Assembly: GCA_015231715.1 (NCBI GenBank) | Contig: JADGBB010000021.1 | Location: forward strand, 1 to 25,055 | DNA from: Candidatus Omnitrophota bacterium | Lineage (GTDB): Bacteria > Omnitrophota > Koll11 > Tantalellales > Tantalellaceae | DNA: 25,055 nucleotides | Direction: 5' to 3' | Shown here: positions 6,791 to 22,992 of the stretch, piece after piece | Position numbering within the stretch: the stretch's first letter is position 1 | How the letters are laid out: every line of letters starts with the position of its first letter | Made by a program: the position numbers and the translations under genes | The notes under the pieces: model-generated | Databases searched by the model: none | Told to the model about the DNA's origin: nothing | Seen by the model: the letters and a program-made list of their open reading frames with translations, nothing else

Positions 6791-6836
6791 ATAAGAATTA
6801 ATAGCAATGTTGTTATAAATTATAAGGAGAGTCGAT

Positions 6837-7097: not shown

Positions 7098-7104
7098 GAT
7101 CAAA

Positions 7105-8217: not shown

Positions 8218-8232
8218 AAAAGGAGAGATAGC

Positions 8233-8376: not shown

Positions 8377-8390
8377 GGGTTTGGAACGAG

Positions 8391-9176: not shown

Positions 9177-9201
9177 AAGGTGAATAAACAGGAGAGTTTT
9201 A

Positions 9202-9465
9202 ATGCGGTTTTTTACGGTTATTAAAGTGATCATAGTGATGCTTTTAACAACATTGACGGTGATCTTCGTGAGCCAGAATACCTCGCCGGTCATGATACAG
9301 CATCCTTTTGGACATTCTGAGAAATTTGGACTTATACATGTTATGGTTTTTATGTTTTTGCTGGGATCGATCACAGGTGTATTTCTTACTTTATGGTTAA
9401 AAGCTAAATTTTTTAAAGAAGAAGCTCATGATGATGAGGATGAAGACTTAGTAGACGATGAATAA
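9202..9465 (+). CDS. LapA-domain two-TM protein, MamL candidate
   Basis: The protein is 87 residues, with GGAG at 9191-9194 before the ATG. Its hairpin architecture is that of the LapA (DUF1049) family: TM1 at about 6-24, the short FVSQNTSPVMIQHPFG loop, TM2 at about 44-65 with a LLGSITGVFL small-residue face, then a tail. MamL in Magnetospirillum has the same two-TM topology but a basic tail; here the tail ends in a run of Asp and Glu (DDEDEDLVDDE). The gene overlaps mamM by 8 bases. MamL identity is suggested by topology and context (mamI and mamQ are also here); a general LapA protein is the alternative. Confidence 0.65.
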   Translation: MRFFTVIKVIIVMLLTTLTVIFVSQNTSPVMIQHPFGHSEKFGLIHVMVFMFLLGSITGVFLTLWLKAKFFKEEAHDDEDEDLVDDE

Positions 9466-10369
9466 AGAAATAAAGAAAATAAAAAACCGGGCAAAATGTG
9501 AAAAATGCGCTCAAAGGACTAGCTGGGTGGGGCTTGTATCCGGTTTTTTTCTTGCTTCTTTTAAATTGGTGATAGGATTTCTTGGCGGCAGCCGCGCTTT
9601 AATGGGCAGCGGGATGTGTAATCTTAGCGATATTTCGTCATCTATTATTGTAATGTTGGGAGTCAAATATTCCCGTAAAGGCGCGAATAAAAAATATCAT
9701 TATGGTTACGGTAAGGTCGAATCAATAGCTCAAGTAGCTATCGGCGCCCTAATGATGCTGGGCAACATTGTACTTATATTCAGTTCATTTGTTGTTATTG
9801 CCAGAAGCACCGTAAGTATCCCGCATATGGTTGTATTTGTTACAGCTATCATAAGCGCGATAGTTAACGGATTGATATACAAGTTCGCGCTTTGCGGAGC
9901 TAAAGAATTAAATAGCCCGGCATTAATGTCGCACGCAGAACACAATAAAGTTGACGTTGTTTCTTCGGTGCTTGTAGCAGTCGGTGTACTCGCGGCAAGG
10001 ATCGGGCTTCATTGGGCGGACCCTGTCATAGCTATTTTTGAGGCTATACATGTTGTACACGGAAGCTGGGTTATATTTTGGGACGGGTTTAAAGGGCTTA
10101 TGGATACCAGCGTTCCGGCGGAATATATAGATGATATTCGTGAACGAGTTTATGAAATAGAAGGCGTAAAAAAAGTAGCGAAAGTAAAAGCGCGCCAATC
10201 GGGACAGATGTTTTATTTGGATATTTCGGTAACGGTAGATCCAAGTATGTCGGTGATGGATTCTAAGGATCTTGTGCAAATGATAAGAAAACATCTTAAA
10301 GATAGAGATAGGTATATAGGCAGCATATTAGTGCAGGTAGTGCCGGCCGGATTAACGGTGGCAGGATAA
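9458..10369 (+). CDS. mamM: MamM-like cation diffusion facilitator (iron transporter)
   Basis: This is a 303-residue CDF transporter with six TM segments and a C-terminal cytoplasmic domain. The N-terminal CEKC (14-17) and the following TSWVGL, then FLGGSRALM, resemble the MamM N-terminus. The transport site reads Cys54-x3-Asp58 in TM2 and His162-x3-Asp166 in TM5; MamM of Magnetospirillum uses Tyr/Asp and His/Asp, so the Cys at the first position is unusual but plausible. MamM and MamB form a heterodimer that loads iron into magnetosomes and nucleates crystals. mamB follows after 5 bases, and the start overlaps the LapA-like gene. Assignment to MamM rather than MamB rests on the His/Asp TM5 pair and on the N-terminus. 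Confidence 0.87.
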   Translation: MNKEIKKIKNRAKCEKCAQRTSWVGLVSGFFLASFKLVIGFLGGSRALMGSGMCNLSDISSSIIVMLGVKYSRKGANKKYHYGYGKVESIAQVAIGALMMLGNIVLIFSSFVVIARSTVSIPHMVVFVTAIISAIVNGLIYKFALCGAKELNSPALMSHAEHNKVDVVSSVLVAVGVLAARIGLHWADPVIAIFEAIHVVHGSWVIFWDGFKGLMDTSVPAEYIDDIRERVYEIEGVKKVAKVKARQSGQMFYLDISVTVDPSMSVMDSKDLVQMIRKHLKDRDRYIGSILVQVVPAGLTVAG

Positions 10370-10374
10370 AAATA

Positions 10375-11295
10375 ATGAACGATAAATGTATAAAATGCGG
10401 AAAGATGGTACCTTGGGTGTGTTTTTTCGGAAACTCGCTCTTGGCTATATTTAAGACTTTTGTAGGAATTGTTTCCGGATCAAAAGGGCTAGTAGCTGAC
10501 GGTATGCATTCGGCCAGTGATGTTCTAGCAACGATAATGGTTCTTATCAGTTTGAGGATAGCCGGACGAAAAGATGATCACACACATCCTTGGGGGCATG
10601 GGAAAGTCGAGTTTGCCGGGGCACTGATGGTGTACACGATACTTTTGTCATTATCGATATTATTATTCAATGATGCACTTAAGGCGATAATAGCGGGTGA
10701 GCTTAAGCCGCCGCATATAGTATCTTTTGTTGCGGCGTCAGTTTCAATAGTAGCGAATTATGTTTTAAGCGGGTACGGGTTTTGCGCCGGAAAACAGCTG
10801 GGGTCTCCGGCGATGATAGCTAATGCTAATGAAAATAGAGCAGATATGCTTTCAAGCGTTGCGGTTGTAATAGGTATTATCGGCGCTAATATGGGCTTTC
10901 TTATTTTGGATTCACTGGCAGCTATTTTGGTGGCTTTAATAATTTTTAAAACAGCGCTTTCTCTTGGGATAGAAGCGTTTAAGAATTTGTTAGATATGTC
11001 TTTGCCGGCCGAGAAAGAAGGGCTCATAAAAAAATTGGTCATGCAGTACCGGGATGTAAAAGGTGTTAGCGCCGTAAAGACACGCAGAGTCGGACAGCAG
11101 GTATGGATAGATATGGAGATATTGGTTGATGCAAGAAAAAGTGTTGAAGAAGCCCATGCTTTGGTGAGAGAACTAAGGCAGGCGCTGATGAGAAAATACA
11201 GACAGATCAAAGATGTTTCGATCAGTTTTACTTGTAAGAATAAAGTTTCAATAAAGAAAAAAAGATCATTGCTTTTTGCCGGCAGTGGAAAATAG
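10375..11295 (+). CDS. mamB: MamB-like cation diffusion facilitator
   Basis: This is a 306-residue CDF protein. It has N-terminal CIKC (5-8), TM2 site His45-x3-Asp49 in ADGMHSASD and TM5 site Glu153-x3-Asp157 in NENRADMLSSVAVV. The region CAGKQLGSPAMIANANENRA parallels CVGNENNSPAIIANAWDNRS of Magnetospirillum MamB, a strong match. The C-terminal domain includes the RRVGQQVWIDMEILVD strand seen in MamB/MamM. MamB is essential for magnetosome vesicle formation and is stabilised by MamM, whose gene lies directly upstream. All four metal-site positions are filled by potential ligands, so it is likely transport-competent. Confidence 0.9.
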   Translation: MNDKCIKCGKMVPWVCFFGNSLLAIFKTFVGIVSGSKGLVADGMHSASDVLATIMVLISLRIAGRKDDHTHPWGHGKVEFAGALMVYTILLSLSILLFNDALKAIIAGELKPPHIVSFVAASVSIVANYVLSGYGFCAGKQLGSPAMIANANENRADMLSSVAVVIGIIGANMGFLILDSLAAILVALIIFKTALSLGIEAFKNLLDMSLPAEKEGLIKKLVMQYRDVKGVSAVKTRRVGQQVWIDMEILVDARKSVEEAHALVRELRQALMRKYRQIKDVSISFTCKNKVSIKKKRSLLFAGSGK

Positions 11296-11312
11296 CGAAA
11301 AGGAGAACAAGA

Positions 11313-12029
11313 ATGGAACCAAAACTTAAAACAAAAAATAATGAAGCAAAAGAAAAACGTGAGGATAAAAATGAAAGTACGCCTGAGTTAATGGCAACTG
11401 TAACCGATAAGGTTGGACAAGGTGTTCAGGGCGTAATGATAGTCAGCGAACGCATTATTGATATGATTATGAGAACGTATAAAAATATTTTTGTAATCGA
11501 TAAAGAGATCGGTAAAGGGTTTTACAAAGATAAAGCTTTTAAAATGTTTGATAAAGGTGAATATGAAAAAGCAGTAGAATTTTTTCATAAAACCATAGAT
11601 GAAGGTGAAGGTGCAAGTGTTGATGTATTGTTTTATCTGGCGAGCGCATATGTTAATCTTGAAAAATATAATGATGCCATTATTTATTTCAGAAAAGCTG
11701 AAAAAATAGATCCGGAAGACAATGACATCATAATGGAAATAGCAGCGTGTTTAGTTAAGCTTGAAGAATACCAGGATGCGATAGAATATCTTGAAAAGAT
11801 AATACTGCAGATACCGGATGTTTCGGAAAATTATTATTTACTAGGTACGTCTTATGAAAAATCAGGCAATATGCAAAAAGGGATCGAAAGTTATAAAAAA
11901 GCCATTGAATTAGATCCGCGTGATTCTGTGTATTATCACGCACTTGGATTTGCATATGAAACAGACGGTAAGCATAACGATGCGATCGCTTGTTTTAAAA
12001 AAGCAATGGAGCTTGAGAAAAAAGGATAA
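11313..12029 (+). CDS. mamA: MamA TPR scaffold protein
   Basis: The protein is 238 residues; AAGGAG at 11299-11304 supports the ATG. An acidic/basic N-terminal extension is followed by about five TPR units at residues 69-102, 103-136, 137-170, 171-204 and 205-238. The first reads YKDKAFKMFDKGEYEKAVEF, matching the YYRDKGISHAKAGRYSQAV segment of MamA. The ending ALGFAYETDGKHNDAIACFKKAMEL parallels the MamA C-terminus. MamA self-assembles into a coat on the cytosolic side of magnetosomes and is needed to activate them. It sits between mamB and mamQ, a typical neighbourhood. Confidence is high; generic TPR proteins are the only alternative. Confidence 0.92.
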   Translation: MEPKLKTKNNEAKEKREDKNESTPELMATVTDKVGQGVQGVMIVSERIIDMIMRTYKNIFVIDKEIGKGFYKDKAFKMFDKGEYEKAVEFFHKTIDEGEGASVDVLFYLASAYVNLEKYNDAIIYFRKAEKIDPEDNDIIMEIAACLVKLEEYQDAIEYLEKIILQIPDVSENYYLLGTSYEKSGNMQKGIESYKKAIELDPRDSVYYHALGFAYETDGKHNDAIACFKKAMELEKKG

Positions 12030-12056
12030 TAGTAAACACAATTTAAGGAGATGGGG

Positions 12057-12758
12057 ATGGCTACTAATAGGATTGCGGATGCGCTTAAAACACTTTTTCC
12101 TGATGATATGGAAATGCTGGTTCCCGCGAAAAAACACTGGTGGGAAAAAGTCGACTGGTCTCCGGTAGTTTCAGGATGGAGATTATGGGCGATATGTTTA
12201 CTTATTGCTGCCTCAGCCTATTTGGGAATTCATTATTATAACCGTATGGTAGTTTTGGAAACTCAGGTTTTAACTGATATGTCACAAATAGAAGCTCAGC
12301 TTCAGAGAAGAAAAGACCTGATAATTAATCTTACAAGAACAGTAGTGGACTACGCTGAACACGAAAAAAGCATGTTCATGTATATGGCTGATACTCGTGC
12401 GGGCTCTATTTCGGATCCCGAAAAACTTATTAATGAAGTAAAGAAAAAAGGGCTGCTGGATTTTTCTGCTATAAAAGAAGCTGACATCAAAGGAGCCATG
12501 GCCGGAGTAATGGCATTGGCTGAAAATTATCCGGAATTAAAACTAAGTTCAAATTTTCAAAATTTTATGGATGCTCTTATTAATATAGAGGACCGTATAG
12601 TTGAAAGAAGAATGTTGTATAACACTTCATGTAATCAATATGGGACTTATTTAAGAAAATTCCCGCAAATGATATATGCCTGGATGTTCAGGTTCAAGAC
12701 TTATGATTTTATTAAAGTTGATAAAGACGTAGCGCTTTTTAATCGGATCGAATATTAG
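12057..12758 (+). CDS. mamQ: MamQ, LemA-family membrane protein
   Basis: The ATG at 12057 is chosen over the ATG at 12051 because AAGGAG at 12045-12050 abuts the latter and sits 6 bases from the former. The product is 233 residues, with a TM at about 41-58 (WAICLLIAASAYLGIHY) and a LemA helical domain from about 63 onward. That domain holds VLTDMSQIEAQLQRRKDLI, the family signature, and NFMDALINIEDRIVERRMLYN. MamQ is required for magnetosome membrane formation in Magnetospirillum. It follows mamA and precedes mamN, both typical partners. The VDWSPVVSGWR segment before the TM helps separate MamQ from general LemA proteins. Confidence 0.92.
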   Translation: MATNRIADALKTLFPDDMEMLVPAKKHWWEKVDWSPVVSGWRLWAICLLIAASAYLGIHYYNRMVVLETQVLTDMSQIEAQLQRRKDLIINLTRTVVDYAEHEKSMFMYMADTRAGSISDPEKLINEVKKKGLLDFSAIKEADIKGAMAGVMALAENYPELKLSSNFQNFMDALINIEDRIVERRMLYNTSCNQYGTYLRKFPQMIYAWMFRFKTYDFIKVDKDVALFNRIEY

Positions 12759-12780
12759 TTTATAGGAGCAGGGGTTTTAT

Positions 12781-14646
12781 ATGGATATTGAAAAATTTGA
12801 TTTTAGGCAATTCTTTGAGTCTATAAATAAGTTTGTAACTGAACGTTTTGGAAAGAGAAAGAAAAAACAAGGTGCTCTTCTTCTTCTTCTTCTTCTTCTT
12901 CTTCTTCTTCTTCTTCTTCTTCTTTTCGTAACCGGCCTTTTTGGCAGCAAGAGGATTCTTAATCAAGAAGGGATGCCCGCGAGAGTTACAGTATCTGCGC
13001 CTAATGCGCTTGATATAAGTGTTATTAATGTTGATCCTGTAATAGCAAGACAGTTTAATGTGCCAAGCGGGGAAGGCGTTTTAATAAACGATATTCCTAG
13101 AGGTACAATGCGTAAGCTTTTAAATTTTAAAAGAGGCGACGCCATATTAGAACTTAACGGAACAATTGTACAATCAAAAGCGCATTTGGGTTTACTTTTG
13201 TCGCAGACGAAACAAGGAGATACGCTGTCTTTTCTGGCGTCAAGGAACGGCAGGCAGTTTGTCGCAAGAGCTGAAATACCGCAAACCGTGGGAATAAGCG
13301 GGACTGTAACAAAATCAGTTATATCTGTATTTCTTGTGCTTGTTATTCTTGGTCTTACATTCGGAGCACTTTTCTTTAATATCGCAAATAGAACCTTGTG
13401 TGTGGGTGTGGGCGCGGCTGTTATGCTTATTGTCGGATCACTTTTTGGTTTTTATCCTCAGTCTCAAGCTTTTGATTCAATAAAGATGAGCCCGATATTT
13501 ATATTTATCGGAATGAGTATTTTTTCTATTGTTTTTGAAAAACTTAGGGTGTTCGAATATTTAGGGAAAAAGATGGTTATAAAAACGGGAGGAGAAGCCA
13601 CAAAGGTTGCTATCGCTTTATGCTCTTTAACTTTTTTGGTCTCGCTATTGATAAATAATATTTCGACCATATTGGTTATCGTACCTTTAACACTATATAT
13701 TTGCCGCAATTTAAAGATCGATCCTGTTCCGATAGTTATAGTTGAAGTAATAAGTTCAAACATCGGCGGGGCATCTACCATGATAGGTGATTTTCCTAAT
13801 ATGCTTATTTCATCAAGCACAGGGCTATCTTTTAATGAATTCTTGATATTTATGCTGCCTATATGTGTTGTTTTAATGCTTGCTCTTTTTTGGTATGTAA
13901 AACATTTCAATGTGTTTGAAATGTCTAAAAATAAAGCCGCTATCTTAAAGAAAGCTTTTCTTGAAAAGCAAAAAACCGAAATTGATGCAATGAATATTGA
14001 TATGAAAGCGGTAAAAAGAACAGCCTGGATGCTTGCGGGTGTTATAGCTTCATTTATGATACTGCCGCGTTTCGGGGTAGGGAACGCTACGATAGCTTTA
14101 GCAGGTGGGTTTGCTCTTTTAGCTGTAGAACACGATTCTGCCAGGCAAATAATTAAAAAAATAAGTTTTCAAGACATAATATTTTTTATTTCGCTTTTTA
14201 TTCTTGTTGGCGGAGCTTTAAATTCCGGGCTTTTAGCCAAAGTATCGGATCTGATCATAGGGATATCCGGAGGAAATAAATTGATATTTCTGATCGCGTT
14301 AATGTGGATGGCCGCGTTGTTTACGGCATTTCTTAATGCCGGACCCGCGGCTGTTTTTTTTATACCAGTTGTAATGCATTCGCAGTTTGCCGCGTTTAGC
14401 GATGTTGTTTGGTGGGCATTATCACTTGGTGTACTTGCCGGGTCATGCGCGACTATTGTCGGGGCTACTGCCGGAATAGTTACTCAAACTTTATTGGAAG
14501 ATCATATTGATCTATATGGCGAGAAAAAAAGAGGCATTTTGACATTCGGCAGATACAGTAAGGATGCTATACCTATTTCGGTGATGTTTTTGGGAATATC
14601 GACTTTGTATATCATGTTCCTCTATAGCGTGCCGTGGATACAGTAA
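12781..14646 (+). CDS. mamN: MamN-like ArsB/NhaD permease with N-terminal PDZ domain and 16-leucine tract
   Basis: This is a 621-residue protein from ATG 12781. A basic N-terminus is followed by 16 consecutive leucines (residues 33-48) that form the first TM. A PDZ domain sits at about 70-160 (ISVINVDPVIARQFNVPSG, then LNFKRGDAILELNG). A polytopic ArsB/NhaD/CitT-type permease runs from about 175 to the end. Permease marks include LLINNISTILVIVPL, GGASTMIGDFPNMLI and FLNAGPAAVFFIPVV. MamN is proposed to move protons or cations out of the magnetosome lumen to regulate pH during crystal growth. The N-terminal PDZ fusion is not part of alphaproteobacterial MamN, which is about 440 residues. The leucine tract is coded by a perfect (CTT)16 repeat, so its length may vary among cells or strains. 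Confidence 0.82.
   Translation: MDIEKFDFRQFFESINKFVTERFGKRKKKQGALLLLLLLLLLLLLLLLFVTGLFGSKRILNQEGMPARVTVSAPNALDISVINVDPVIARQFNVPSGEGVLINDIPRGTMRKLLNFKRGDAILELNGTIVQSKAHLGLLLSQTKQGDTLSFLASRNGRQFVARAEIPQTVGISGTVTKSVISVFLVLVILGLTFGALFFNIANRTLCVGVGAAVMLIVGSLFGFYPQSQAFDSIKMSPIFIFIGMSIFSIVFEKLRVFEYLGKKMVIKTGGEATKVAIALCSLTFLVSLLINNISTILVIVPLTLYICRNLKIDPVPIVIVEVISSNIGGASTMIGDFPNMLISSSTGLSFNEFLIFMLPICVVLMLALFWYVKHFNVFEMSKNKAAILKKAFLEKQKTEIDAMNIDMKAVKRTAWMLAGVIASFMILPRFGVGNATIALAGGFALLAVEHDSARQIIKKISFQDIIFFISLFILVGGALNSGLLAKVSDLIIGISGGNKLIFLIALMWMAALFTAFLNAGPAAVFFIPVVMHSQFAAFSDVVWWALSLGVLAGSCATIVGATAGIVTQTLLEDHIDLYGEKKRGILTFGRYSKDAIPISVMFLGISTLYIMFLYSVPWIQ
12877..12924 (+). repeat. perfect (CTT)16 trinucleotide microsatellite inside mamN
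   Basis: Sixteen uninterrupted CTT codons encode the first TM helix of the MamN-like protein. Because the unit is three bases, slippage would change helix length without shifting frame. All 16 Leu codons are identical, although leucine elsewhere in the gene is encoded by TTA, TTG, CTT, CTG and others. That points to recent slippage expansion. On the opposite strand it reads as a poly-Lys shadow ORF. Confidence 0.97.
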
Positions 14647-14676
14647 AATTTAACTTTAAAATGGATAAATAAAAAA

Positions 14677-15630
14677 ATGGAAAAAGTAAGTGTTATATCT
14701 GATAAACAAAATGTACTAAACATAGTAATGTCGCTGATAGTAGTCGGTCTTTGCGCTTTAGCGATGTTTGGTGTGCCTTCAATGAGCTCTCAGGGGCCTA
14801 GCCAAATTGCGACAGCAGGGCCGTCAGTTTTTAGTATAATTTCTATAGGCCTGGCGATAGGTTGTTACGGTACTATTGTCGGTATAGGCGGGGGACCTTT
14901 AATAGTTCCTATTCTTGTATTGTTCTATGGGTGGGATAACGAAATACTGGTTGCTACTTCTTTGTTCATTGTTTTTCTAAATGCTTTATCAGGGTCAGTA
15001 GGGTACGCCAGGCAGAAAAGGATCGAGTATAAAGGAGCAATTAAATTTTCTTTGGCAGCAATTCCGGGAGCGCTTCTTTCGGCCTTTATCCACCATACGT
15101 TTGATATAAAAGCCTTTGATCTGATGTTTGGAATATTTTTGATATTTTTAGCGGTATATTCACTTGTCAGCGCAAAAAAAATGGATCGTGAGATACCTAA
15201 AATCAATAAAAAGCTCATAGAAAAAGGGCATAGGCTTGTTGAACTCAAGGACAAGTTTAATGATAAATTTAAATTTACTGTTGATGACGGTTTAGGTATA
15301 AAGATGAATCTTATTCTTGGTTTTTTTGTAGGGTTTTTGGGAATAGGCGGAGGAGTCTTTCAAGTTCCTGTTTTGATATTTTTGTTGAAGTATCCGCCGC
15401 ATATAGCTACGGCAACAAGTCATTTTGTAACTATGGCTACATGTCTTTTTGCCCTTATTCCTCATCTATTTCTGGGTAATGTTATGTTCGATGAAGCATT
15501 ATGGATGGGTGTGGGGATCGTGACAGGTGCACAGTTAGGTGCGTATTTGTCACCTAAATTGAACGCAAAATTGATCGTTTATTTGTTTGTACTTATATTG
15601 TTTGTTTTTGCTTTAAAAATGTTTTTGTAG
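14677..15630 (+). CDS. TauE/SafE-family permease (MamO C-terminal-like)
   Basis: This 317-residue polytopic protein has the two-half TauE/SafE (DUF81) fold. The first half carries IVGIGGGPLIVPILVLFY and ATSLFIVFLNALSGSVGYARQ; the second carries GFLGIGGGVFQVPVLIFLL and ATATSHFVTMATCLFAL. In Magnetospirillum this domain is the C-terminal half of MamO, fused to a degenerate protease. Separate genes for it ('mamO-Cter') are known from deltaproteobacterial and Nitrospirota clusters. Here it stands alone, 30 bases after mamN. The N-terminal region has a first TM at about 13-33, then SSQGPSQIATAGPS. The substrate is unknown; sulfite and other anions are typical for the family. Confidence 0.85.
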   Translation: MEKVSVISDKQNVLNIVMSLIVVGLCALAMFGVPSMSSQGPSQIATAGPSVFSIISIGLAIGCYGTIVGIGGGPLIVPILVLFYGWDNEILVATSLFIVFLNALSGSVGYARQKRIEYKGAIKFSLAAIPGALLSAFIHHTFDIKAFDLMFGIFLIFLAVYSLVSAKKMDREIPKINKKLIEKGHRLVELKDKFNDKFKFTVDDGLGIKMNLILGFFVGFLGIGGGVFQVPVLIFLLKYPPHIATATSHFVTMATCLFALIPHLFLGNVMFDEALWMGVGIVTGAQLGAYLSPKLNAKLIVYLFVLILFVFALKMFL

Positions 15631-15647
15631 AGCTATAGAGAGGAATA

Positions 15648-16337
15648 ATGAAGAGAGATATATTAGCGTTTACAGGTGCCGTTTTTGTTTTGGTGCTGGT
15701 TGTTTTGGCGCTATTCAATAACAAGCCAGCTTTTGTAGGCAGCACAAGACAGATGGCGAAAGAAATAGGGCATGAAATAAGAACGGCAGATATGTTCAAG
15801 TTAACTGCATTTTGTCCGACAACTCCGTCGGCTAACTATACTCCTGTGGCATTGACTCAAAAAACAATAATTAAACAGGGAGCTGAAAAACCAGTATTGA
15901 TAAAGGAATTAGGAGTTGAGGCTGTCCCAATTTCCGGAGGTAAGGTCAAGATAACAGGTATTATGGGTAATTCATGGGCCATGAAAGCCGGTTTAAAAAC
16001 TGAAGATATTGTTTTGAACTTTAACGGTAAAAAACTTACAAGCTTATCACAATTTCAAGCTTTGCTTTCAGGCGTTCCGCCGGAAGCAAATTATAAAATA
16101 AAAGTATTACGAGGTTCTGAGGTTGTAAAAAAAGTAGTTTGGGTCGGGGAAGGCGAAATGGAAGGGTTTACTCCGATAGTTCAGGTAGCACTCACAAGGC
16201 CTATTCAAAACCAACAAGGATTTGGGCTTTGTTTTTTTAAGTGTAAAGCCTGCGGTAACTCTTTTATGTCGCAGAATAACGGGACTATTTACGGACCAAA
16301 TTGTCCGATTTGCGGAAATCAAATGTTGAAAGTTTAA
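15648..16337 (+). CDS. membrane-anchored PDZ protein with C-terminal Cys4 ribbon
   Basis: The protein is 229 residues, with GAGAGG at 15636-15641 before the ATG. It has a TM at about 6-23 and a Pro/Thr-rich linker. A PDZ domain lies at about 83-168 (ITGIMGNSWAMKAGLKTEDIVLNFNG). A zinc-ribbon-like tail at about 195-225 carries FKCKACGNSF and GPNCPICGNQM (Cys199/202 and Cys219/222). Joining a PDZ to the same Cys4 ribbon found in the NifX-like proteins links the two domain families of this cluster. Two copies of a VALT-containing peptide (TPVALTQ at 65-71, VQVALTR at 178-184) flank the PDZ. No named family is recognised. Confidence 0.72.
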   Translation: MKRDILAFTGAVFVLVLVVLALFNNKPAFVGSTRQMAKEIGHEIRTADMFKLTAFCPTTPSANYTPVALTQKTIIKQGAEKPVLIKELGVEAVPISGGKVKITGIMGNSWAMKAGLKTEDIVLNFNGKKLTSLSQFQALLSGVPPEANYKIKVLRGSEVVKKVVWVGEGEMEGFTPIVQVALTRPIQNQQGFGLCFFKCKACGNSFMSQNNGTIYGPNCPICGNQMLKV

Positions 16338-16380
16338 CAGTGCACAAGAGATCGAGTGTAGAGAATATAAGGAGAAGCGG

Positions 16381-16563
16381 ATGGAACCGATAACAATGGC
16401 AATGATAGCAGTTGTTGCAGGAGTTGGCGCAATCATTACTAAATCAAGGTCTAATTCAAAGAAGATAGATATGATCAATAAAAAAATTCATAAAGATTAT
16501 GGAATAGAAGGCGATCCTGAACTTGAAAAAGAAATAGACGAAATAATAGCAAAAGTAAAATAG
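16381..16563 (+). CDS. 60-residue single-TM protein with charged tail
   Basis: The ATG at 16381 follows AAGGAGAAG at 16370-16378. The N-terminal hydrophobic stretch (TMAMIAVVAGVGAIIT) is followed by a highly charged, probably helical cytoplasmic tail rich in Lys, Asp and Glu (DPELEKEIDEIIAKVK). The stop is 7 bases before the next start. No family is recognised; small tail-anchored or signal-anchored proteins of this kind are common in magnetosome clusters. The strong ribosome site and tight packing support it as a real gene. Confidence 0.6.
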   Translation: MEPITMAMIAVVAGVGAIITKSRSNSKKIDMINKKIHKDYGIEGDPELEKEIDEIIAKVK

Positions 16564-16570
16564 GCCGGAT

Positions 16571-17281
16571 ATGATAAAAAACAAGTCAACATTATACATA
16601 ATAATACTCGCTTTGGTTGTGGCAGCATTAGGTGTTAAATTTATTACCGAAAAAGCACAGCCGATAACCATGTCAGGCAAAAGCGCAAGATATATAGCTA
16701 TACCTTCAACAGGAAAAGATATTAATAGTCCTGTTTCTTATCTTTGCGGGAGAGCTCCATATTTTATAATTTGCGACAGGGCTACAGGTACATATAAAGC
16801 CATACTTAATAAATACACTGATGCTCAGCATGCCTCAGGCCTAAAATCAGGACAGATGCTGGTCAGTAAAAAAATTGATGCATTATGTGCAAATAATGTA
16901 GGGTTTGAGCCGATGAGAGTTTTGCATAACGCGAATATTGAAGTTTATACAAATATTAAGGGAACAGTTTGGCAGACGCTTAATGCGTACCCTAATTCAT
17001 TGACTAAAATAGAAAAACAGACAGTGCCGTCACATTTCGGAATAACCGGGAGCAAAACTCCTATAGCCTGTAATTCATTTGATATTACAGCTAATTTGGG
17101 TGATATTGTGCAAGGCAAATATTATATATGCGGTGCGTGCCAGTTTAGGATATCGGCTGCAAGTACAGGAGGAACAGTTCCTGTTAACTGCCCGAACTGC
17201 GGAGGCCTATTGCAAGAAGTGATAACGGTTAATCCGATTAACCAAAAAGGCGGAGTGAAGCCCAAAGTCAGGGTTTACTAA
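16571..17281 (+). CDS. membrane-anchored NifX-like domain protein with one Cys4 ribbon
   Basis: This is a 236-residue protein with a TM at about 7-24. A diverged dinitrogenase Fe-Mo cofactor (NifX/NafY) domain lies at about 40-145 (IAIPSTGKDINSPVSYLCGRAPYF..., then ASGLKSGQMLVSKKIDALCANNVG). A zinc-ribbon-like module lies at about 185-213, with YYICGACQFRI and VNCPNCGGLL (Cys187/190 and Cys207/210). It has the same domain order as the protein at 5099-6790 but one ribbon instead of six, so the two are probably paralogues. NifX-type domains bind Fe-S or Fe-Mo precursors; a metal-binding role on the magnetosome membrane is inference. It starts 7 bases after the preceding small gene. Confidence 0.7.
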   Translation: MIKNKSTLYIIILALVVAALGVKFITEKAQPITMSGKSARYIAIPSTGKDINSPVSYLCGRAPYFIICDRATGTYKAILNKYTDAQHASGLKSGQMLVSKKIDALCANNVGFEPMRVLHNANIEVYTNIKGTVWQTLNAYPNSLTKIEKQTVPSHFGITGSKTPIACNSFDITANLGDIVQGKYYICGACQFRISAASTGGTVPVNCPNCGGLLQEVITVNPINQKGGVKPKVRVY

Positions 17282-17301
17282 TAAACTAGGGAAAAACAAT
17301 T

Positions 17302-17661
17302 ATGAATAGAATAATAAAAAATAAAACTTTAGATGATCAAGAATTGATCAAGCTTGTAATAATCGGGACAATAATTTTTGTTTGGATATTTGCATATACT
17401 GCGTATTCTGTTTGTAAATTTAATGAAGTTTCTTCAAGAGCATTAGTTAAACCTAATGTTGTTATGAAGGTTATACATCACGGCGTAAAAAGCGTTTGTC
17501 CTATTTGTGGTTTTAAGGGACTGCCTTTATGTCCTAATTGTTCTGTTGAAATGTACTGGAATGGTTATCAGGGAACATTTGTTTGTTCTTCCTGCGGGAA
17601 GGGCGGTTTCCCTAATTGTCCAAAATGCGCTCATCCAATGTCATGGATAGAAGCAGTTTAG
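17302..17661 (+). CDS. membrane-anchored double zinc-ribbon protein
   Basis: The protein is 119 residues, with a TM at about 17-36 and two Cys4 units. CPICGFKGLPLCPNC spans 66-80 and CSSCGKGGFPNCPKC spans 95-109. Each is followed within two or three residues by a hydrophobic or Met-Ser/Tyr-Trp motif (VEMYW, HPMSW). The G-[FL]-P-x-C-P-x-C signature matches the ribbons at 5099-6790, but the first knuckle is closer to the second. The start is 20 bases after the NifX-like gene. It looks like a stand-alone version of the ribbon module. Zinc or iron binding is likely; function is unknown. Confidence 0.68.
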   Translation: MNRIIKNKTLDDQELIKLVIIGTIIFVWIFAYTAYSVCKFNEVSSRALVKPNVVMKVIHHGVKSVCPICGFKGLPLCPNCSVEMYWNGYQGTFVCSSCGKGGFPNCPKCAHPMSWIEAV

Positions 17662-17679
17662 TATTGGGAAAGGAAAAAT

Positions 17680-17817
17680 ATGCCTAGATGGAAATTGTTG
17701 CTTATAATTTTTTTGGTTGCGCTTATATTACTCATAATAGGTGATTCAAGAGGCGACGTTTTGGAAACACATAATAACGGCGCTGGAATGTGTATGGCAT
17801 GCATAGGTTTAGATTAA
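17680..17817 (+). CDS. 45-residue single-TM microprotein with GMCMACIG tail
   Basis: The ATG at 17680 follows AAAGGA at 17670-17675. The sequence begins PRWKLLL, has a TM to about residue 21, then GDSRGDVLETHNNG and ends in GMCMACIGLD, a CxxC near the C-terminus. The stop is 24 bases before the NapH-like polyferredoxin gene. The pairing with a polyferredoxin suggests a small redox partner, but that is inference. No named family is recognised. Confidence 0.55.
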   Translation: MPRWKLLLIIFLVALILLIIGDSRGDVLETHNNGAGMCMACIGLD

Positions 17818-17841
17818 GAAATAAAATAACGGAGTAAATTA

Positions 17842-18711
17842 ATGGATTTAAATTCAATTAGGGTAGCTATACAATGGGTGTGCTTGATAGGATCGAACGC
17901 GTACCTTGGGTTTGTAAGTACTAAACAGGTATATCAAGGTTCTTTGAAAGGCGCTTGTGTGCCGTTCTTGAATTGTCATGCTTGTCCCAGCGCTTTATTT
18001 TCTTGCCCTATCGGAACTATGCAGCATTATATCACTACACATAAATTTCCTTTTTCTTTGTTGGGATATCTTGTAGGTACGTCTCTTTTAGTCGGATCGA
18101 TGGCTTGCGGGTGGCTGTGTCCTTTTGGTTTTCTTCAGGATCTCGCGTATAAGATCAAAAGCTTTAAGATACGGATACCTGAGAAGCTTGCTCCGTTCAG
18201 ATATTTTATTTTAGTTTTTCTTGTTATTTTATTGCCGGCAGTAACACATGAAACATGGTTTTCAAAACTTTGTCCGATGGGGACATTACAGGCAGCGCTT
18301 CCTTGGGCTTTATGGAATCCAATAATTCCTGTATACAATGAACCTGCGGTAGCCACCGCTGGATTAGGTATGTTTTTTGCAATCAAGATATTGATACTTT
18401 TATTTTTTCTTGGACTATTCGTCATATCAAAAAGACCTTTTTGTAAAGTCATCTGTCCGTTAGGCGCAATATTCGGGCTGTTTAACAAATACAGTTTTTT
18501 CAGATTAAAAGTAGATACTAAAGCGTGTAAAGATTGTGCTAAATGTGTTGATACTTGTCCTGTTGATATTAATGTCGGGGATGATGCGAATTCCAGCACT
18601 TGTGTAAGATGTCTAAAATGTTTGAAATGTGAACATGTAAAAATAGATCTTGGCGGATTGAGTGACAAGATAGAGTTCAAAGGGTTGGGGCCCCTAAAGA
18701 AAAATGACTAA
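17842..18711 (+). CDS. NapH-like membrane polyferredoxin
   Basis: This 289-residue membrane iron-sulfur protein has four or five TM segments. Repeated Cys motifs of the NapH/NosR/RdxA type are present: FLNCHACPSALFSCPIGTMQ (42-61), CGWLCPFGFLQ (89-99), KLCPMGTLQ (142-150) and FCKVICPLGAI (200-210). Two C-terminal [4Fe-4S] sites follow: CKDCAKCVDTCP (229-240) and CVRCLKCLKC (254-263). NapH proteins pass electrons from quinol to periplasmic partners. NapH-type ferredoxins have been reported in deltaproteobacterial and Nitrospirota magnetosome clusters, where they are named as mad genes. Here the likely role is electron supply or removal for the magnetochromes, which is inference. GGAG at 17831-17834 supports the ATG. 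Its end overlaps the next gene by 8 bases. Confidence 0.86.
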   Translation: MDLNSIRVAIQWVCLIGSNAYLGFVSTKQVYQGSLKGACVPFLNCHACPSALFSCPIGTMQHYITTHKFPFSLLGYLVGTSLLVGSMACGWLCPFGFLQDLAYKIKSFKIRIPEKLAPFRYFILVFLVILLPAVTHETWFSKLCPMGTLQAALPWALWNPIIPVYNEPAVATAGLGMFFAIKILILLFFLGLFVISKRPFCKVICPLGAIFGLFNKYSFFRLKVDTKACKDCAKCVDTCPVDINVGDDANSSTCVRCLKCLKCEHVKIDLGGLSDKIEFKGLGPLKKND

Positions 18712-19135
18712 AGCAAATTCATATAAAATAACCAAATCATATCTTATGATCTATATTCTGATCGCTGTTCTCGGAGTATTGTTCACTGTTTTTTTAGAAA
18801 GCAGGATCATGTCAACTGCCGCTTCGAGAAAAGACGCATGGATAGGGATCGAGACAGTTGAGGTCAACAGAGCTTTAGTAAAACAATATGATATGACATC
18901 GTCGCGCGGGCTTTTGGTAACTAGAGTTTTTATGGGCTCGCCTGCGGAGGCAGGAGGGTTAGTTAAAGGCGATATTATAAGAATGTGGAACGGAATAAGT
19001 ACGATCAATCAAAATCAATTTCATAATCTTGCTAAAAGTGTTTATGTAGGACAAAAAGTGCAGCTTTCAGTAGACCGGAATGGTAAGCCGGATATGGTTT
19101 ACGTGAAGATCGGGATAAGACCGGGAACTTATTAA
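18704..19135 (+). CDS. small membrane-anchored PDZ protein
   Basis: The protein is 143 residues: a TM at about 12-32 and a single PDZ domain at about 44-137. The PDZ opens with WIGIETVEVNRALVKQYD, has the GSPAEAGGLVKGDIIRMWNG carboxylate-binding and helix region, and ends in SVDRNGKPDMVYV. The GSPAxAGxxxGDII core is close to the PDZ of the MamE-like protein (GSPANLAGIERGDIITF). It overlaps the polyferredoxin gene by 8 bases, implying coupled translation. No Cys motif is present. It is probably an adaptor or sorting factor; no named family. Confidence 0.75.
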   Translation: MTKANSYKITKSYLMIYILIAVLGVLFTVFLESRIMSTAASRKDAWIGIETVEVNRALVKQYDMTSSRGLLVTRVFMGSPAEAGGLVKGDIIRMWNGISTINQNQFHNLAKSVYVGQKVQLSVDRNGKPDMVYVKIGIRPGTY

Positions 19136-19177
19136 AACCAGGCGTTTAGGCTGTAATAGATAAAAGGAGAAAATAAA

Positions 19178-19864
19178 ATGAAAAAGCGTGAAATAAAAAA
19201 GAAAGAGATATGCACCGATGACTCATGCGGTTCATGTGCAAATGAATCATCCAAACAAATATGGGTTATAGGTATTGTAGGAATAATACTTGTAACACTT
19301 TTTTCTATAGCTATGTTCAATTCAGGAGCTAAAAAGCTGCCGGCAGATACTGCAATGCAGGCGGTAGCTTTTAATGGATTTATGCAGCAGGCAGCTGTAC
19401 CTCCTGCATGCGCAACATGTCCTACCGTCGCACAATGTTTTCCGGCTCAGCCAGTTGCTTTTCAGCAAGGAGGAAATCCACCTCAAGGTGCTGTATGTCC
19501 TACAGGGAATCAGTATTATTCAGCTCAGCCGATGCAGCAGCAACAGCAGTCAGTAATGCAACAAGGGATGCAGCAAGTAGCTTTGGCAATGGCAACACCT
19601 GCTACGGCAACAGCTCCTGTTATTTTTCGTGATGCGATAATGCCCCACGAATTTAGAGGAGTATGTTCGAATTGTCATGTTATACAAGCCGATATACCAA
19701 TATTGAGAGATGCTATAATGCCTCATAATTATAGAGGAGTATGTTCAAATTGTCATAAGATCATGCCGGATATAGCTATAACAAGAGATGCCGTGCCGCC
19801 TCATGAATACAGAGGCGTATGTTCAAATTGTCATGTTATTTCAGGGATGAAAGCAGGAGCATAA
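19178..19864 (+). CDS. triple-magnetochrome membrane protein
   Basis: The protein is 228 residues, with AAAGGAG at 19164-19170 before the ATG. The N-terminus is Cys-rich (CTDDSCGSC at 12-20), followed by a TM at about 28-46. A Gln/Pro/Ala-rich linker with further Cys (CATC at 78-81) spans about 60-148. Three near-identical magnetochromes end the protein: CSNCH at 163-167, 189-193 and 215-219, exactly 26 residues apart, each preceded by RDA[IV][MP]PH and [FY]RGV. Magnetochromes are c-type haem motifs specific to magnetosome proteins (MamE, MamP, MamT, MamX). This protein resembles MamT in size class but has three haem motifs instead of two. An iron redox role with the MamP-like protein and NapH-like ferredoxin is inferred. 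Confidence 0.85.
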   Translation: MKKREIKKKEICTDDSCGSCANESSKQIWVIGIVGIILVTLFSIAMFNSGAKKLPADTAMQAVAFNGFMQQAAVPPACATCPTVAQCFPAQPVAFQQGGNPPQGAVCPTGNQYYSAQPMQQQQQSVMQQGMQQVALAMATPATATAPVIFRDAIMPHEFRGVCSNCHVIQADIPILRDAIMPHNYRGVCSNCHKIMPDIAITRDAVPPHEYRGVCSNCHVISGMKAGA

Positions 19865-19871
19865 AAATAAT

Positions 19872-20765
19872 ATGATAAAACGAAGCATTAGAAATAATCC
19901 TGAACAGGAGCAGAAAGAAAAAGCGGCATATATGCTTTTGTATTTCTTTATAGCATCCTTTTTATGTAAAGTTGCGTTTGGCGCGATATCGGGTTCTAAA
20001 GCTCTTATGGTATCGGGTGTTTTTGCTTTGTTTGGTTTTTTTGTTTCGGTTATAACACTTTTAAGAATACATGTTTCATACAACAAGACGAGTTTAGGTA
20101 AAAATAAGATCAGCTATGAAAAGCTGGAATTTTTTATTGTAGCCGGGATATCTTTAATCATAGCAGTTTCAACAGGAATTATTTTATTTTCTGTTTTACA
20201 TGTTATATTTTTTCACACTTTATATCCGCCCGGATTCAGCGCGGCGTGGATATCGGCGCTTATTGCCGCAGCGAGCATATGGCTTATTTCAGCTATGAAA
20301 GACGGCTCTGAAGAATCGAGCGATGAAGCAGCGGATAGCCACAGCATAATGCACATGGTGAATAAAGATTTTATTTTATCCATAACGGTTATTGTTACAG
20401 TTGTCGTTACTAGATTCGGTTTTTTTGTTTTCGATTATATAGTGGCTATTCTTGAAGCAGTTCTCATCATAGCTTACAGCGTGTATTTTTTATATAATTC
20501 TTTCAAAGGCCTTATGGATGTTTCATGCGATAAAAAAACATTAGAACAAATAAAAAAATCCGTTAAAAAAGCAGATCCCGGAATAAGAATAAAAAACATA
20601 AGAATAAAAACAGATGAAAATAAACTGGATATGGTAATTATAGTAGGCATGTCGAAAAGTACGTCCGGATCTGAAGTGAAAAAAGTAATTGAAAAAATAC
20701 GCGGTTCATTAAGAGCAAATTTAAAAATAGAACATGAAGTTCATGTCGGGGTTGTAGCCGGTTGA
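19872..20765 (+). CDS. degenerate MamM-like CDF protein
   Basis: This is a 297-residue CDF-family protein with six TM segments. Its C-terminal domain ends in HEVHVGVVAG, similar to the VQVVPAGLTVAG end of the first MamM. The N-terminal CxxC is missing. Aligning on GSKALM and on the TM5 Asp puts Phe51 and Gly55 at the TM2 site and Met162 and Asp166 at the TM5 site, so three of four metal ligands are lost. It is probably a non-transporting partner, comparable in concept to regulatory CDF subunits or MamV. It is followed by a MamB-like gene with ATG only 14 bases after its stop, mirroring the mamM-mamB order upstream. FKGLMD before the C-terminal domain is shared with the first pair. Confidence 0.75.
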   Translation: MIKRSIRNNPEQEQKEKAAYMLLYFFIASFLCKVAFGAISGSKALMVSGVFALFGFFVSVITLLRIHVSYNKTSLGKNKISYEKLEFFIVAGISLIIAVSTGIILFSVLHVIFFHTLYPPGFSAAWISALIAAASIWLISAMKDGSEESSDEAADSHSIMHMVNKDFILSITVIVTVVVTRFGFFVFDYIVAILEAVLIIAYSVYFLYNSFKGLMDVSCDKKTLEQIKKSVKKADPGIRIKNIRIKTDENKLDMVIIVGMSKSTSGSEVKKVIEKIRGSLRANLKIEHEVHVGVVAG

Positions 20766-20779
20766 GGTCAAAGGAAACT

Positions 20780-21667
20780 ATGAGTAAGAATAAATGTTTA
20801 GATTTTGATTTTTGCGAATCATGTTCAAAAAAAATATTACTTTGGACTATAGCAGGCAATGTTTTCTTGACAGTTATCAAGCTTTCGGGAGGGATCGTAT
20901 CCGGAAGTTCCGGGCTAATGGCTGACGGGATGCAGTCTGTTTCATGTGTTGTCGCGAGCATCCTCATAATGTACAGCATGGTAATTGCAAAAAAACAAAA
21001 AAATGAAAGGTATCCGTTTGGGTACGGGAAAATAGAATTCATAGTGGCATTGGTTGTGTTCAGCGTTCTTATGGGACTGGGGCTGTATATTTTCTTGTCG
21101 AATCTTATAATGATAATGAAAAGAACGGTTGTGCCTCCTTCAATTATAGGTTTACCTGTTGCGGTCATATCGTCTTTTCTTACTTATATGATGTACAAAT
21201 ATAATGCATGCGCAGGGTCTAAACTTGACAGTGCGGGACTAGTTGCCAACGGACTTCAGGCAAGAGCCGATATGTTTTCATCAGTGGCAGTAACTATCGG
21301 AATAATTATGTCGCAGCTCGGTCCAGTATGTGCGGCATTCGACCGTGTTGCGGCTATGCTAGTCGGAATATTAATTGTGTATGATTCATATCAGCATTGG
21401 GTGGTAAATCTAAATATTATTTTAGATAAAGGTCCGGAACACAGCTATGAAGAAAAAGTAAAAAATATTATTTCTGAAATAATTCCGGGTTTTAGGCCGG
21501 CGGTAATAAAGATAAAAAGGATGGGTAAAAAGTTTTGGTTAGGCATTAGTTTGAAAATGACAGAAAATGAAAATGTAGAAAATTTTAATTTAAAAGCCGA
21601 TGATACGGCAAAAAAACTTCAAGAACAATGTCTTTGGATAAATGAAATTGATTTTTTTCTTGAATAG
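20780..21667 (+). CDS. MamB-like CDF protein with altered metal site
   Basis: The ATG at 20780 is preferred over an upstream TTG at 20762, because AAAGGA at 20770-20775 sits at good distance from it and the TTG overlaps the previous stop. The 295-residue product has CESC at 12-15, the MamB-like ERYPFGYGKIEF and YNACAGSKLDSAGLVAN segments, and six TMs. The metal site reads Gln52-x3-Cys56 in TM2 and Gln160-x3-Asp164 in TM5. The His/Asp and Glu/Asp of the first MamB are thus largely replaced. Transport activity is doubtful; a role as scaffold, metal sensor or heterodimer partner is more likely. It is the second half of a duplicated MamM-MamB pair in this cluster. Confidence 0.78.
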   Translation: MSKNKCLDFDFCESCSKKILLWTIAGNVFLTVIKLSGGIVSGSSGLMADGMQSVSCVVASILIMYSMVIAKKQKNERYPFGYGKIEFIVALVVFSVLMGLGLYIFLSNLIMIMKRTVVPPSIIGLPVAVISSFLTYMMYKYNACAGSKLDSAGLVANGLQARADMFSSVAVTIGIIMSQLGPVCAAFDRVAAMLVGILIVYDSYQHWVVNLNIILDKGPEHSYEEKVKNIISEIIPGFRPAVIKIKRMGKKFWLGISLKMTENENVENFNLKADDTAKKLQEQCLWINEIDFFLE

Positions 21668-21682
21668 GGAGAGCTGAACAAT

Positions 21683-22381
21683 ATGGAAAACAAACAATTA
21701 ATCAGAGGTATATTTATTGGCGCAATTGTGACTATCGTTGTAGTAATGATAATCGCTATGTTTACTGGAAGAGGAGCTATGGTTGTTCCGTTTACGGACG
21801 GCGGAATGGAAATGCAGCAGCCCGGTTTTTATCAACAGCCTGTATATAATCAACAGCCAATGTATAACCAGCAGCCGCAATTTAATCAACAGCCGCAGTT
21901 TAACCAGCAACAAGTATACAATCAGCAACCGGTATATAATCAGCAGCCGATGAATTACGTTCAGCCTCAGTTCAATCAGCAGTTAGCATATCGTCCTATG
22001 CTCGGCCAATGCGCGCCGGGAACACAATTTGTCGCATTGACAAACGCTGTCGGACAAACTATTAAAGGATCTCATCAAATACCACCTATTGGTATAGAAG
22101 TCGGAGCTGCACCTAATAACGGAGTTCTAGTAACAAAAGTTTACGCAGGATCTCACGCTCAGATAGGCGGTATGTGTCCTGGTGACATTATTGTTGCCGT
22201 GGGCGGAACGAAAGTCACTGACTTGAATTCATTTTTCACAGCTATTCAAGCCGCGCAAATAGAACTCACAGCTACTATAAGTGTTATACGTTCGGGAAGA
22301 GTACAGAACTTAAGCGTAATGATAGGCCAATCCGAAATGGACGCCGTAACAGTCCCAACCAACGCCCCGGCTCCGTACTAA
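21683..22381 (+). CDS. membrane-anchored PDZ protein with YNQQP hexapeptide repeats
   Basis: The protein is 232 residues, with a TM at about 8-26. A low-complexity linker at about 45-100 is built from some nine hexapeptides of the type [YF]NQQPx. It is followed by a Cys-containing segment with QFVALTN at 115-121, and a PDZ domain at about 130-216 (PIGIEVGAAPNNGVLVTKV, GDIIVAVGG). The tail is Pro/Ala-rich. The Gln-rich linker may be a flexible spacer across the vesicle lumen or a self-associating segment. It is the last gene of the co-directional run; the pair of large inverted elements starts 15 bases after its stop. No named family is recognised. Confidence 0.75.
   Translation: MENKQLIRGIFIGAIVTIVVVMIIAMFTGRGAMVVPFTDGGMEMQQPGFYQQPVYNQQPMYNQQPQFNQQPQFNQQQVYNQQPVYNQQPMNYVQPQFNQQLAYRPMLGQCAPGTQFVALTNAVGQTIKGSHQIPPIGIEVGAAPNNGVLVTKVYAGSHAQIGGMCPGDIIVAVGGTKVTDLNSFFTAIQAAQIELTATISVIRSGRVQNLSVMIGQSEMDAVTVPTNAPAPY
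21815..21982 (+). repeat. tandem 18-base coding repeats ([YF]NQQPx)
   Basis: About nine imperfect 18-base units encode [YF]NQQPx hexapeptides. Synonymous differences among units (CAACAG, CAGCAG, CAGCAA) suggest the array is not a very recent expansion. It lies in the linker of the PDZ protein at 21683-22381. Confidence 0.85.
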
Positions 22382-22396
22382 AAATAAAATAAACTC

Positions 22397-22673
22397 TACG
22401 ACGTTACATCCTGATGGATTATTTCAGGAACCAGAATTTTGCCTTTGAAAGATAAAAATAACCGAGGCCGCTAAAAAATTACTACCTTTTGCGCCTGCGG
22501 AACTCGGCTTTACAAGGATACATATTCCTTCTTAGGGCGGAATATGTATCCTTGTAAAACCTCAAACAGTCCTCGGCGCCAGAAGTTCTTTCAGAACTTC
22601 TGGAACCAAAAGGTAGTAATTTTTCTTAACGCTAAAATTCCAATATTCCTGAAACAATCCATCAGGATGTAAC
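22397..22673 (+). ncRNA. structured element copy 1 (four nested stems, conserved linkers)
   Basis: Stems read directly from the sequence: P1 22403-22428 with 22648-22673 (26 positions, one mismatch), P2 22474-22491 with 22607-22624 (18 bp, perfect), P3 22510-22528 with 22539-22557 (19 bp, perfect) and P4 22579-22589 with 22593-22603 (11 bp, 3-base loop). P1 encloses P2, and P2 encloses P3 and P4 as a three-way junction. The linkers 22429-22473, 22492-22509, 22558-22578 and 22625-22647 are nearly identical to those of copy 2, while the stem sequences are not. CCGAGG in the first linker can also pair with CTCGG in the second or CCTCGG in the third, allowing pseudoknots or alternative folds. Whether it acts as RNA or as folded DNA is unknown. 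It lies just after the last magnetosome gene. Confidence 0.75.
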
Positions 22674-22719
22674 TCAGCACACCTTAATATATTTTTCAAA
22701 ATAAGTTACAACGAGCAAA

Positions 22720-22992
22720 GTTACAGGGTAGGATGGATGTTTTCAAAACTTCGTGATTTTAGCGTCACGAAAATGCTGGCTTTTGGGATCCAGAGTCCCC
22801 AAGGGACTCTGGACACCGAGGACTGTTTGAGGTTTTACATAAAAATGTATTCTGCCTAAAGAATAGATTTTTATGTAAAGCCGAGTTCCGCAGGTGCAAA
22901 AGCCAGCATTTTCGTAGCGGCCTCGGTTATTTTTACTTTCAGAAGGCAAAATCATGGTTTTGAAAACATCCATCCTACCCTGTAACGTCGTA
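22720..22992 (-). ncRNA. structured element copy 2, opposite orientation
   Basis: Read on the minus strand this is the same architecture as copy 1. P1 pairs 22720-22749 with 22957-22986 (30 bp, perfect), P2 pairs 22768-22785 with 22897-22914 (18 bp, perfect), P3 pairs 22835-22853 with 22860-22878 (19 positions, one mismatch) and P4 pairs 22789-22799 with 22803-22813 (11 bp, 3-base loop). P2, P3 and P4 have exactly the lengths of copy 1, but their sequences are unrelated apart from the closing TTAC/GTAA of P3. Linkers 22879-22896 and 22814-22834 each differ from copy 1 at one base over 18 and 21 bases. The 6-base leader TACGAC before P1 is shared too. A 46-base spacer separates the copies. No protein gene is supported within it. 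Confidence 0.75.

What the first reader, a model, noticed from the sequence alone, without database searches (positions are those of the whole stretch)
22397..22992. Two facing copies of a four-stem element with rewritten stems and conserved linkers (natural covariation)
Copy 1 (+ strand) and copy 2 (- strand) have the same P1-P2-(P3,P4) layout, with P2, P3 and P4 lengths of 18, 19 and 11 in both and 3-base P4 loops. Stem sequences are almost entirely different between copies but each is self-complementary. The single-stranded linkers are nearly identical (for example CGCCTGCGGAACTCGGCT against CACCTGCGGAACTCGGCT). That pattern means base pairing, not stem sequence, is being kept. It fits a large structured RNA or a mobile element recognised as folded single-stranded DNA (comparable in principle to attC sites or REP elements). 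I recognise no known family (not GOLLD, ROOL, HEARO or an attC by length and motifs), but cannot search.
Basis: seen in the sequence. Interest (0 to 1): 0.95.

Follow-up and report, generated by a model that had tools for sequence, protein, structure and literature searches.

The report
Self-rewriting palindromic DNA repeat
The window holds two facing copies of an unnamed DNA repeat found in many bacterial phyla, whose short linkers stay the same while its long stems are rewritten from copy to copy; it is likely a mobile DNA hairpin predicted to make new stems by copying neighbouring DNA backwards.

Summary
Copy 1 (+, 22403-22673) and copy 2 (-, 22720-22986) share linkers and layout but not stem sequence. 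It is not an Rfam family and not an assembly artefact. Facing pairs recur (24 of 25 inverted pairs, window included). In 14 copies of two Patescibacteria genomes 20 of 31 stem pairs change on both sides and 1 of 434 cells is a one-sided G-U change, which points to upkeep at DNA level. In the genus of G005 (Eggerthellaceae) all 18 measurable copies carry different outer stems, many of them long inverted duplications. Copies lie in frame inside priA and peptidase-U32 genes whose orthologs lack them. I read it as a selfish palindromic element, RPE- or REP-like in behaviour, whose stems are renewed by snap-back synthesis. Its enzyme was not found, Y1/RAYT genes are not neighbours, and which arm is the copy is open.

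The parts
22397..22402 (+). TACGAC just outside the foot of copy 1, shared with copy 2
22403..22430 (+). copy 1 P1, 5' arm
   Evidence: (I2)
22462..22471 (+). copy 1 conserved linker CCGAGGCCGC
22474..22491 (+). copy 1 P2, 5' arm (18 bp, perfect)
   Evidence: I8
22495..22506 (+). core part A, CTGCGGAACTCG, copy 1
22506..22561 (+). copy 1 P3 hairpin
   Evidence: I5
22561..22576 (+). core part B, CTCAAACAGTCCTCGG, copy 1
22579..22603 (+). copy 1 P4 hairpin, 11 bp, loop TTC (GAA on the other strand)
22607..22624 (+). copy 1 P2, 3' arm
   Evidence: I8
22646..22673 (+). copy 1 P1, 3' arm
   Evidence: I2
22674..22719 (.). spacer between the two facing copies
22720..22749 (-). copy 2 P1, 3' arm (30 bp, perfect)
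   Evidence: I3
22767..22785 (-). copy 2 P2, 3' arm (19 bp, perfect)
   Evidence: I7
22789..22813 (-). copy 2 P4 hairpin, 11 bp, 3-base loop
22816..22831 (-). core part B, copy 2
22831..22882 (-). copy 2 P3 hairpin
   Evidence: I6
22880..22892 (-). core part A (TGCGGAACTCGGC), copy 2
22897..22915 (-). copy 2 P2, 5' arm
   Evidence: I7
22957..22986 (-). copy 2 P1, 5' arm
   Evidence: I3
22987..22992 (-). TACGAC (read on -) outside the foot of copy 2

Best explanation
The two copies belong to a palindromic DNA repeat family with a conserved two-part core, dispersed across many bacterial phyla, which is likely a selfish mobile element and is predicted to renew its stems by snap-back (template-switch) DNA synthesis. 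Shown: the family, its copy number, the conserved core, recurring facing pairs, two-sided stem changes in one set, site-specific inverted duplications as outer stems in one genus, and in-frame presence inside genes whose orthologs lack it. Inferred: the core is recognised as a folded single DNA strand (probably the one reading CGAGGACTGTTTGAG...CGAGTTCCGCAG); during synthesis a strand folds at this hairpin and copies the arm or host flank just passed, so that one arm is added to or overwrites the other. A site thereby gains a private outer stem, and point changes in one arm are carried to the other, which looks like natural covariation. Not known: the enzyme that moves it, and which arm is the copy.
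For: CT precedes part A in 141 of 145 and part B in 143 of 145 distinct copies, outside the search pattern. DNA-level upkeep: 14 copies, 31 pairs, 20 with changes on both sides, 76 two-sided cells, 1 one-sided (U-G) cell of 434, 0 of 500 shuffles as high. One strand: of 67 triloops among 118 distinct P3 inserts, GNA 29 times on the minus strand and 0 on the plus strand. Private outer stems: longest exact arms 57 bp in L073, 37 in L023, 30 in L178, 28 in L033; all 18 measurable copies in the genus of G005 differ (and, for earlier loci). Flank capture: the arm holds the last 8 nt of a luxR-type gene in L073 and the last 6 nt of a gene in L247. Mobility: in-frame elements in priA (L254) and in two peptidase-U32 genes (L246, L252, opposite orientations); priA linker 240 nt with element, 84-99 nt in five orthologs without; removing module plus one arm leaves 93-94 nt against 99 in L273, removing both arms leaves 61. 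Facing pairs 24 of 25, cores 151-326 nt apart, window 241.
Against: No transposase or nuclease was tied to it: no hit of a RAYT profile in 3,283 ORFs of 120 loci, no credible core beside 20 Y1 genes, Y1_Tnp absent from 7 of 20 carriers. Private outer stems are not general: copies in G001, G002, G003, G018 and G019 share much of their stems, and the two copies in G226 share one arm (L260, L261). Several private arms are imperfect (L242, L244, L248, L249). Direction of copying is unresolved (99 versus 97) and the priA size argument rests on one site. In G003 6-bp direct repeats (4 of 6 copies with both ends found by script; L150 and L152 also exact by eye, L151 one mismatch, L141 two, L144 none) suit an ordinary transposase. 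MFE folds do not separate elements from tRNAs in G-U content (6.0% plus, 8.0% minus, tRNAs 8.8%, background 10.75%). The G-rich-strand bias of G001 (15 of 15) is not seen over all phyla (65 of 113). No strain-level empty site was found.
Confidence: 0.5

Rival explanations
1. A MITE-type element moved in trans by ordinary DDE transposases; the core is a passenger and each lineage has its own terminal repeats.
For: 6-bp direct repeats and a shared terminal repeat GTTCCCATCCCGAAAG in G003.
Against: In the genus of G005 all 18 measurable copies have different outer stems, so the ends can hardly be the recognised sequence there; in G003, where both ends are among the places listed, they lie about 115-175 bp apart and no kilobase partner is seen (partial list).
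Confidence: 0.17
2. A REP-like element of a divergent tyrosine (HuH, Y1/RAYT) transposase that acts on folded single-stranded DNA from elsewhere in the genome.
For: One-strand GNA loops, dispersal, inverted pairs as in BIMEs, 13 of 20 carriers have a Y1_Tnp gene.
Against: 7 of 20 carriers lack one, including G002 with 31 copies (drafts); 5 of 14 control genomes have one too; no gene-element adjacency; no GT[AG]G foot at the window copies.
Confidence: 0.12
3. The element inserts into inverted repeats that are already there, so its outer stems are target palindromes and nothing is copied.
For: A short inverted repeat brackets the priA linker in the uninterrupted ortholog L273; a sister genome has a long palindrome without the core beside an orthologous gene (L202); L273 is a single case.
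Against: Perfect arms of 57 bp (L073) or about 65 bp with one mismatch (L255) are too long for ordinary terminators, and the priA linkers of 84-99 nt have no room for two arms of about 49 nt beside the rest.
Confidence: 0.1
4. A structured RNA (untranslated-region element or small RNA) with RNA-level covariation.
For: Strong folds; sense orientation to flanking genes 16 versus 2 in G001/G007.
Against: Near absence of G-U changes in the helices, coding-frame insertions in both orientations, no Rfam match, weak bias elsewhere (33 versus 21; 72 copies near contig or stretch ends left out).
Confidence: 0.08
5. Assembly artefact (inverted chimera).
For: Two facing, partly complementary copies.
Against: The copies differ in all stems and 23 other facing pairs are seen in loci of other genomes.
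Confidence: 0.01

Closest known systems
Rickettsia palindromic elements (RPE; passages of PMC10969869, which cites Ogata 2000 and 2002, not opened)
   Same: Short palindromic repeats in many copies with in-frame insertion in unrelated protein genes.
   Different: The review describes RPEs in Rickettsia; here one core spans many phyla and the stems differ from site to site in at least one genus. No sequence comparison with RPEs was made. That RPEs have no known transposase is recalled.
REP/BIME elements with TnpA-REP (PMC6006769, part of the abstract and passages)
   Same: Intergenic hairpins in many copies, often paired, suited to recognition as folded single-stranded DNA.
   Different: REPs are given as 21-65 nt with a GT[AG]G foot and mostly with a tnpA-REP gene within 1 kb; here 100-300 nt, no such foot in the window, no such gene near the loci read.
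Bacterial MITEs (PMC10969869, passages)
   Same: Small elements; direct target repeats in G003.
   Different: MITEs keep their ends; in the genus of G005 this keeps its inside and changes its ends.
Quasipalindrome correction and template-switch hairpins (PMC8794818, PMC7202029; start of abstracts in the listing)
   Same: Template switching makes and keeps perfect stems with two-sided changes.
   Different: Those are mutation events at single sites; here it would act again and again on one dispersed element family.

Membership tests
REP / RAYT system | GT[AG]G tetranucleotide at the hairpin foot | tested here: not met
   Window copies have TACGAC-GTTACA at the foot; not scored over the family.
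REP / RAYT system | tnpA-REP (Y1) gene near the repeats | tested here: not met
   0 hits of a profile built from 13 Y1 proteins among 3,283 ORFs of 120 loci; around 20 Y1 loci only half-motifs and one poor core-like match in L123.
RPE | palindromic repeat inserted in frame in protein genes | tested here: met
   priA in L254 and peptidase U32 in L246 and L252 against orthologs without it.
RPE | sequence relation to RPE families | not tested
   No RPE sequence was fetched.
MITE | direct target repeats | tested here: inconclusive
   G003: 4 of 6 exact 6-mers by script, shuffled pairings as good in 117 of 20,000; other taxa not tested by script.
MITE | terminal inverted repeats shared between copies | tested here: inconclusive
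   Shared in G003 but different in all 18 measurable copies of the genus of G005.
Rfam structured RNA | match at the gathering score | tested here: not met
   0 matches (window and 9 loci); only sub-threshold hits.
Integron attC site | R and L boxes, cassette array, integron integrase | not tested
   No such search was made.

The most novel reading that the evidence does not exclude
A new class of mobile DNA that writes its own ends from its target: a conserved folded-strand core inserts, primes synthesis on itself and copies the host flank backwards, so every insertion acquires private, paired arms and the element spreads across phyla without conserved terminal sequences.
Probability: 0.35. 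Interest if true: 0.92.

Novelty: new variant of a known kind. Interest (0 to 1): 0.76.

Why it matters
How palindromic repeats such as RPEs spread is open (recalled). This family has a fixed core, replaceable stems and insertions inside orthologous genes, so snap-back synthesis versus transposase action can be tested directly. It also warns that strong covariation can arise from copying at DNA level rather than from RNA function.

Tried and rejected
Rfam at gathering and at E up to 10: nothing credible. Viral contigs with five patterns: 0; the gap was too short for the window's own copies, and searches were strict. Phages and plasmids (only chance-level pieces; no match). Motif letters in papers: 38 papers, all with part-A letters or their complement only and none with part B; 1; judged chance by title, none opened. 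Term searches gave no description of this repeat. RAYT idea: no adjacency. Core halves split by a gene (140 loci): none. Autonomous partner by terminal repeat in G003: none among the places listed. Orientation versus GC skew: strong only in Patescibacteria. Wobble counts by strand (47 versus 28, p 0.04) were not used because related copies share sites. Empty site by a flanking gene of L023: neighbours differ. Direction of arm copying in priA: undecided. Prevalence by exact pattern (6 of 119 in the family of G005; 5 of 237 in the phylum of G010; centres included) is a lower bound: the priA search of 15 genomes lists about 75 places that match the element-coded stretch, known exact copies included, some weak. 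A notebook line that says more than 90 is too high.

Full report
1. Observation. Both fold far better than shuffled sequence. In the alignment the linkers are nearly the same and the stem interiors are not. CTCAAACAGTCCTCGG matches nowhere else in the window within 3 mismatches.

2. A dispersed family. By title they include Pseudomonadota, Patescibacteria, Bacillota, Actinomycetota, Bacteroidota, Myxococcota, Omnitrophota, Nitrospirota, Desulfobacterota, Campylobacterota and a Gastranaerophilales bin; many are draft bins, some are isolates. Twenty genomes chosen from these loci hold 1 to 41 exact copies each. CT stands before part A in 141 of 145 and before part B in 143 of 145 distinct copies, outside the search pattern. 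Drawn evenly, 6 of 119 genomes of one family and 5 of 237 of one phylum have an exact match, the known carriers included, so exact copies are patchy; degenerate ones are commoner. Phage, plasmid and viral-contig searches found none, with the limits told in Tried and rejected.

3. Layout. Of 25 inverted pairs within 600 nt, 24 are facing, the window's included; cores lie 151-326 nt apart, 241 in the window. Loci with such a pair: 20 of 66 Pseudomonadota/other, 2 of 18 Patescibacteria, 1 of 12 Bacillota, the window, and 0 of the other 24 (groups set by me from the titles). In three loci (L016, L061, L091) two copies lie 1.2-1.7 kb apart with genes between: unknown ORFs, a DUF2971-like match just under its cut-off, and DUF3800.

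4. How the stems change. From G001 and G007, 14 copies with equal hairpin length were aligned (14 of the 21 listed; the 7 with the other length were left out; one conserved A-C mismatch column was left unpaired by me). Of 434 cells 95.4% pair, 20 of 31 pairs have changes on both sides, 76 cells are two-sided and 1 is one-sided (U-G); no shuffle of 500 reaches this and sliding the partner destroys it. The structure was read from these sequences, and the copies are related. RNA helices normally drift through G-U (general knowledge). An MFE comparison does not separate the elements (6.0% G-U plus, 8.0% minus, 39 tRNAs 8.8%, background 10.75%); it also pairs loop bases, so I rely on the alignment count. 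Of 67 P3 triloops, GNA loops occur 29 times on the minus strand and never on the plus strand; such DNA triloops are unusually stable (recalled). This suggests that one strand folds as DNA.

5. Private outer stems. In the genus of G005 (titled Eggerthellaceae) 19 copies were fetched: 12 of G005, 4 of G117, 2 of G134, 1 of G064; one (L253) is cut by its contig end, and the other 18 have different outer arms. Examples: 37 bp exact in L023, 30 in L178, about 65 bp with one mismatch in L255; L242, L244, L248 and L249 are imperfect. L073, from another Eggerthellaceae record, has 57 bp exact. Its arm includes the last 8 nt of a luxR-type gene; in L247 the arm includes the last 6 nt of a gene that reads like a permease by eye. 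Host sequence thus forms the stem and stands inverted on the far side of the core. This is not general: copies in G001, G002, G003, G018 and G019 share much of their stems, and the two copies of G226 share one arm.

6. Insertions inside genes. An element lies in frame in priA of G117 (L254) and, in opposite orientations, in orthologous peptidase-U32 genes of G005 (L246) and G117 (L252). Most orthologs have shorter variable linkers there; some carry other inserts (L263, L288, L292). The priA linker is 240 nt with the element and 84-99 nt in the five orthologs measured (L266, L267, L268, L270, L273); L269 and L271 are also short but not measured, L263-L265 have other longer linkers, and L272 lacks the stretch. 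Taking out the module and one arm leaves 93-94 nt against 99 in L273; taking out both arms leaves 61. So one arm looks old and one new, but the sequence does not say which (scores 99 and 97). A short inverted repeat that brackets the linker is already present in L273, where a copying strand could rejoin; that is one site only, and it also suits the rival of pre-existing palindromes.

7. Mechanism. I commit to a selfish palindromic element whose arms are renewed by snap-back or template-switch synthesis. Template switching that creates and keeps perfect stems is documented in other settings (PMC8794818, PMC7202029; start of the abstracts in the listing). The recognition step is inferred and the enzyme unknown. 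A Y1/RAYT transposase was looked for and not tied to it. In G003 6-bp direct repeats flank several copies, so in some hosts an ordinary transposase may move it; this is the best rival.

8. Place among known kinds. It behaves like Rickettsia palindromic elements (in-frame insertion; PMC10969869, passages) and like REP elements (PMC6006769, part of the abstract and passages), fails the REP features tested, and was not compared in sequence with RPEs. I found no description of it: motif letters and term searches in the held library gave none; most subscription papers are not held.

Noticed in passing
window 3085-22381: A magnetosome-like gene cluster: NCBIfam hits to MamE, MamP, MamB/MamM (three CDF proteins), MamN and a MamO-like TauE protein, each below its curated cut-off, so divergent. 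The facing pair lies just after its last PDZ gene.
   Followed up: partly
   Followed up: no
L005, L014, L016, L029, L091 and other Pseudomonadota loci: Upstream of the element lie further hairpins around AAAGTARCCAAAGAAAAGGCGACCCC.
   Followed up: partly
L016, L061, L091: Genes (unknown ORFs, DUF2971-like, DUF3800) lie between two inverted elements 1.2-1.7 kb apart, cassette-like.
   Followed up: partly
G001 contigs (L211-L230): 15 of 15 elements in the stretches fetched have the core + strand on the G-rich strand, one of them between genes that run the other way.
   Followed up: partly
L202, beside the gene orthologous to L023:346-1147: A different long inverted repeat without the core in a sister genome, hinting that palindrome growth may be common in this genus.
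   Followed up: no
L031: Arms of 114/108 nt reach promoter-like sequence and what read like gene starts on both sides of the element, as if a promoter had been duplicated inverted (by eye).
   Followed up: no
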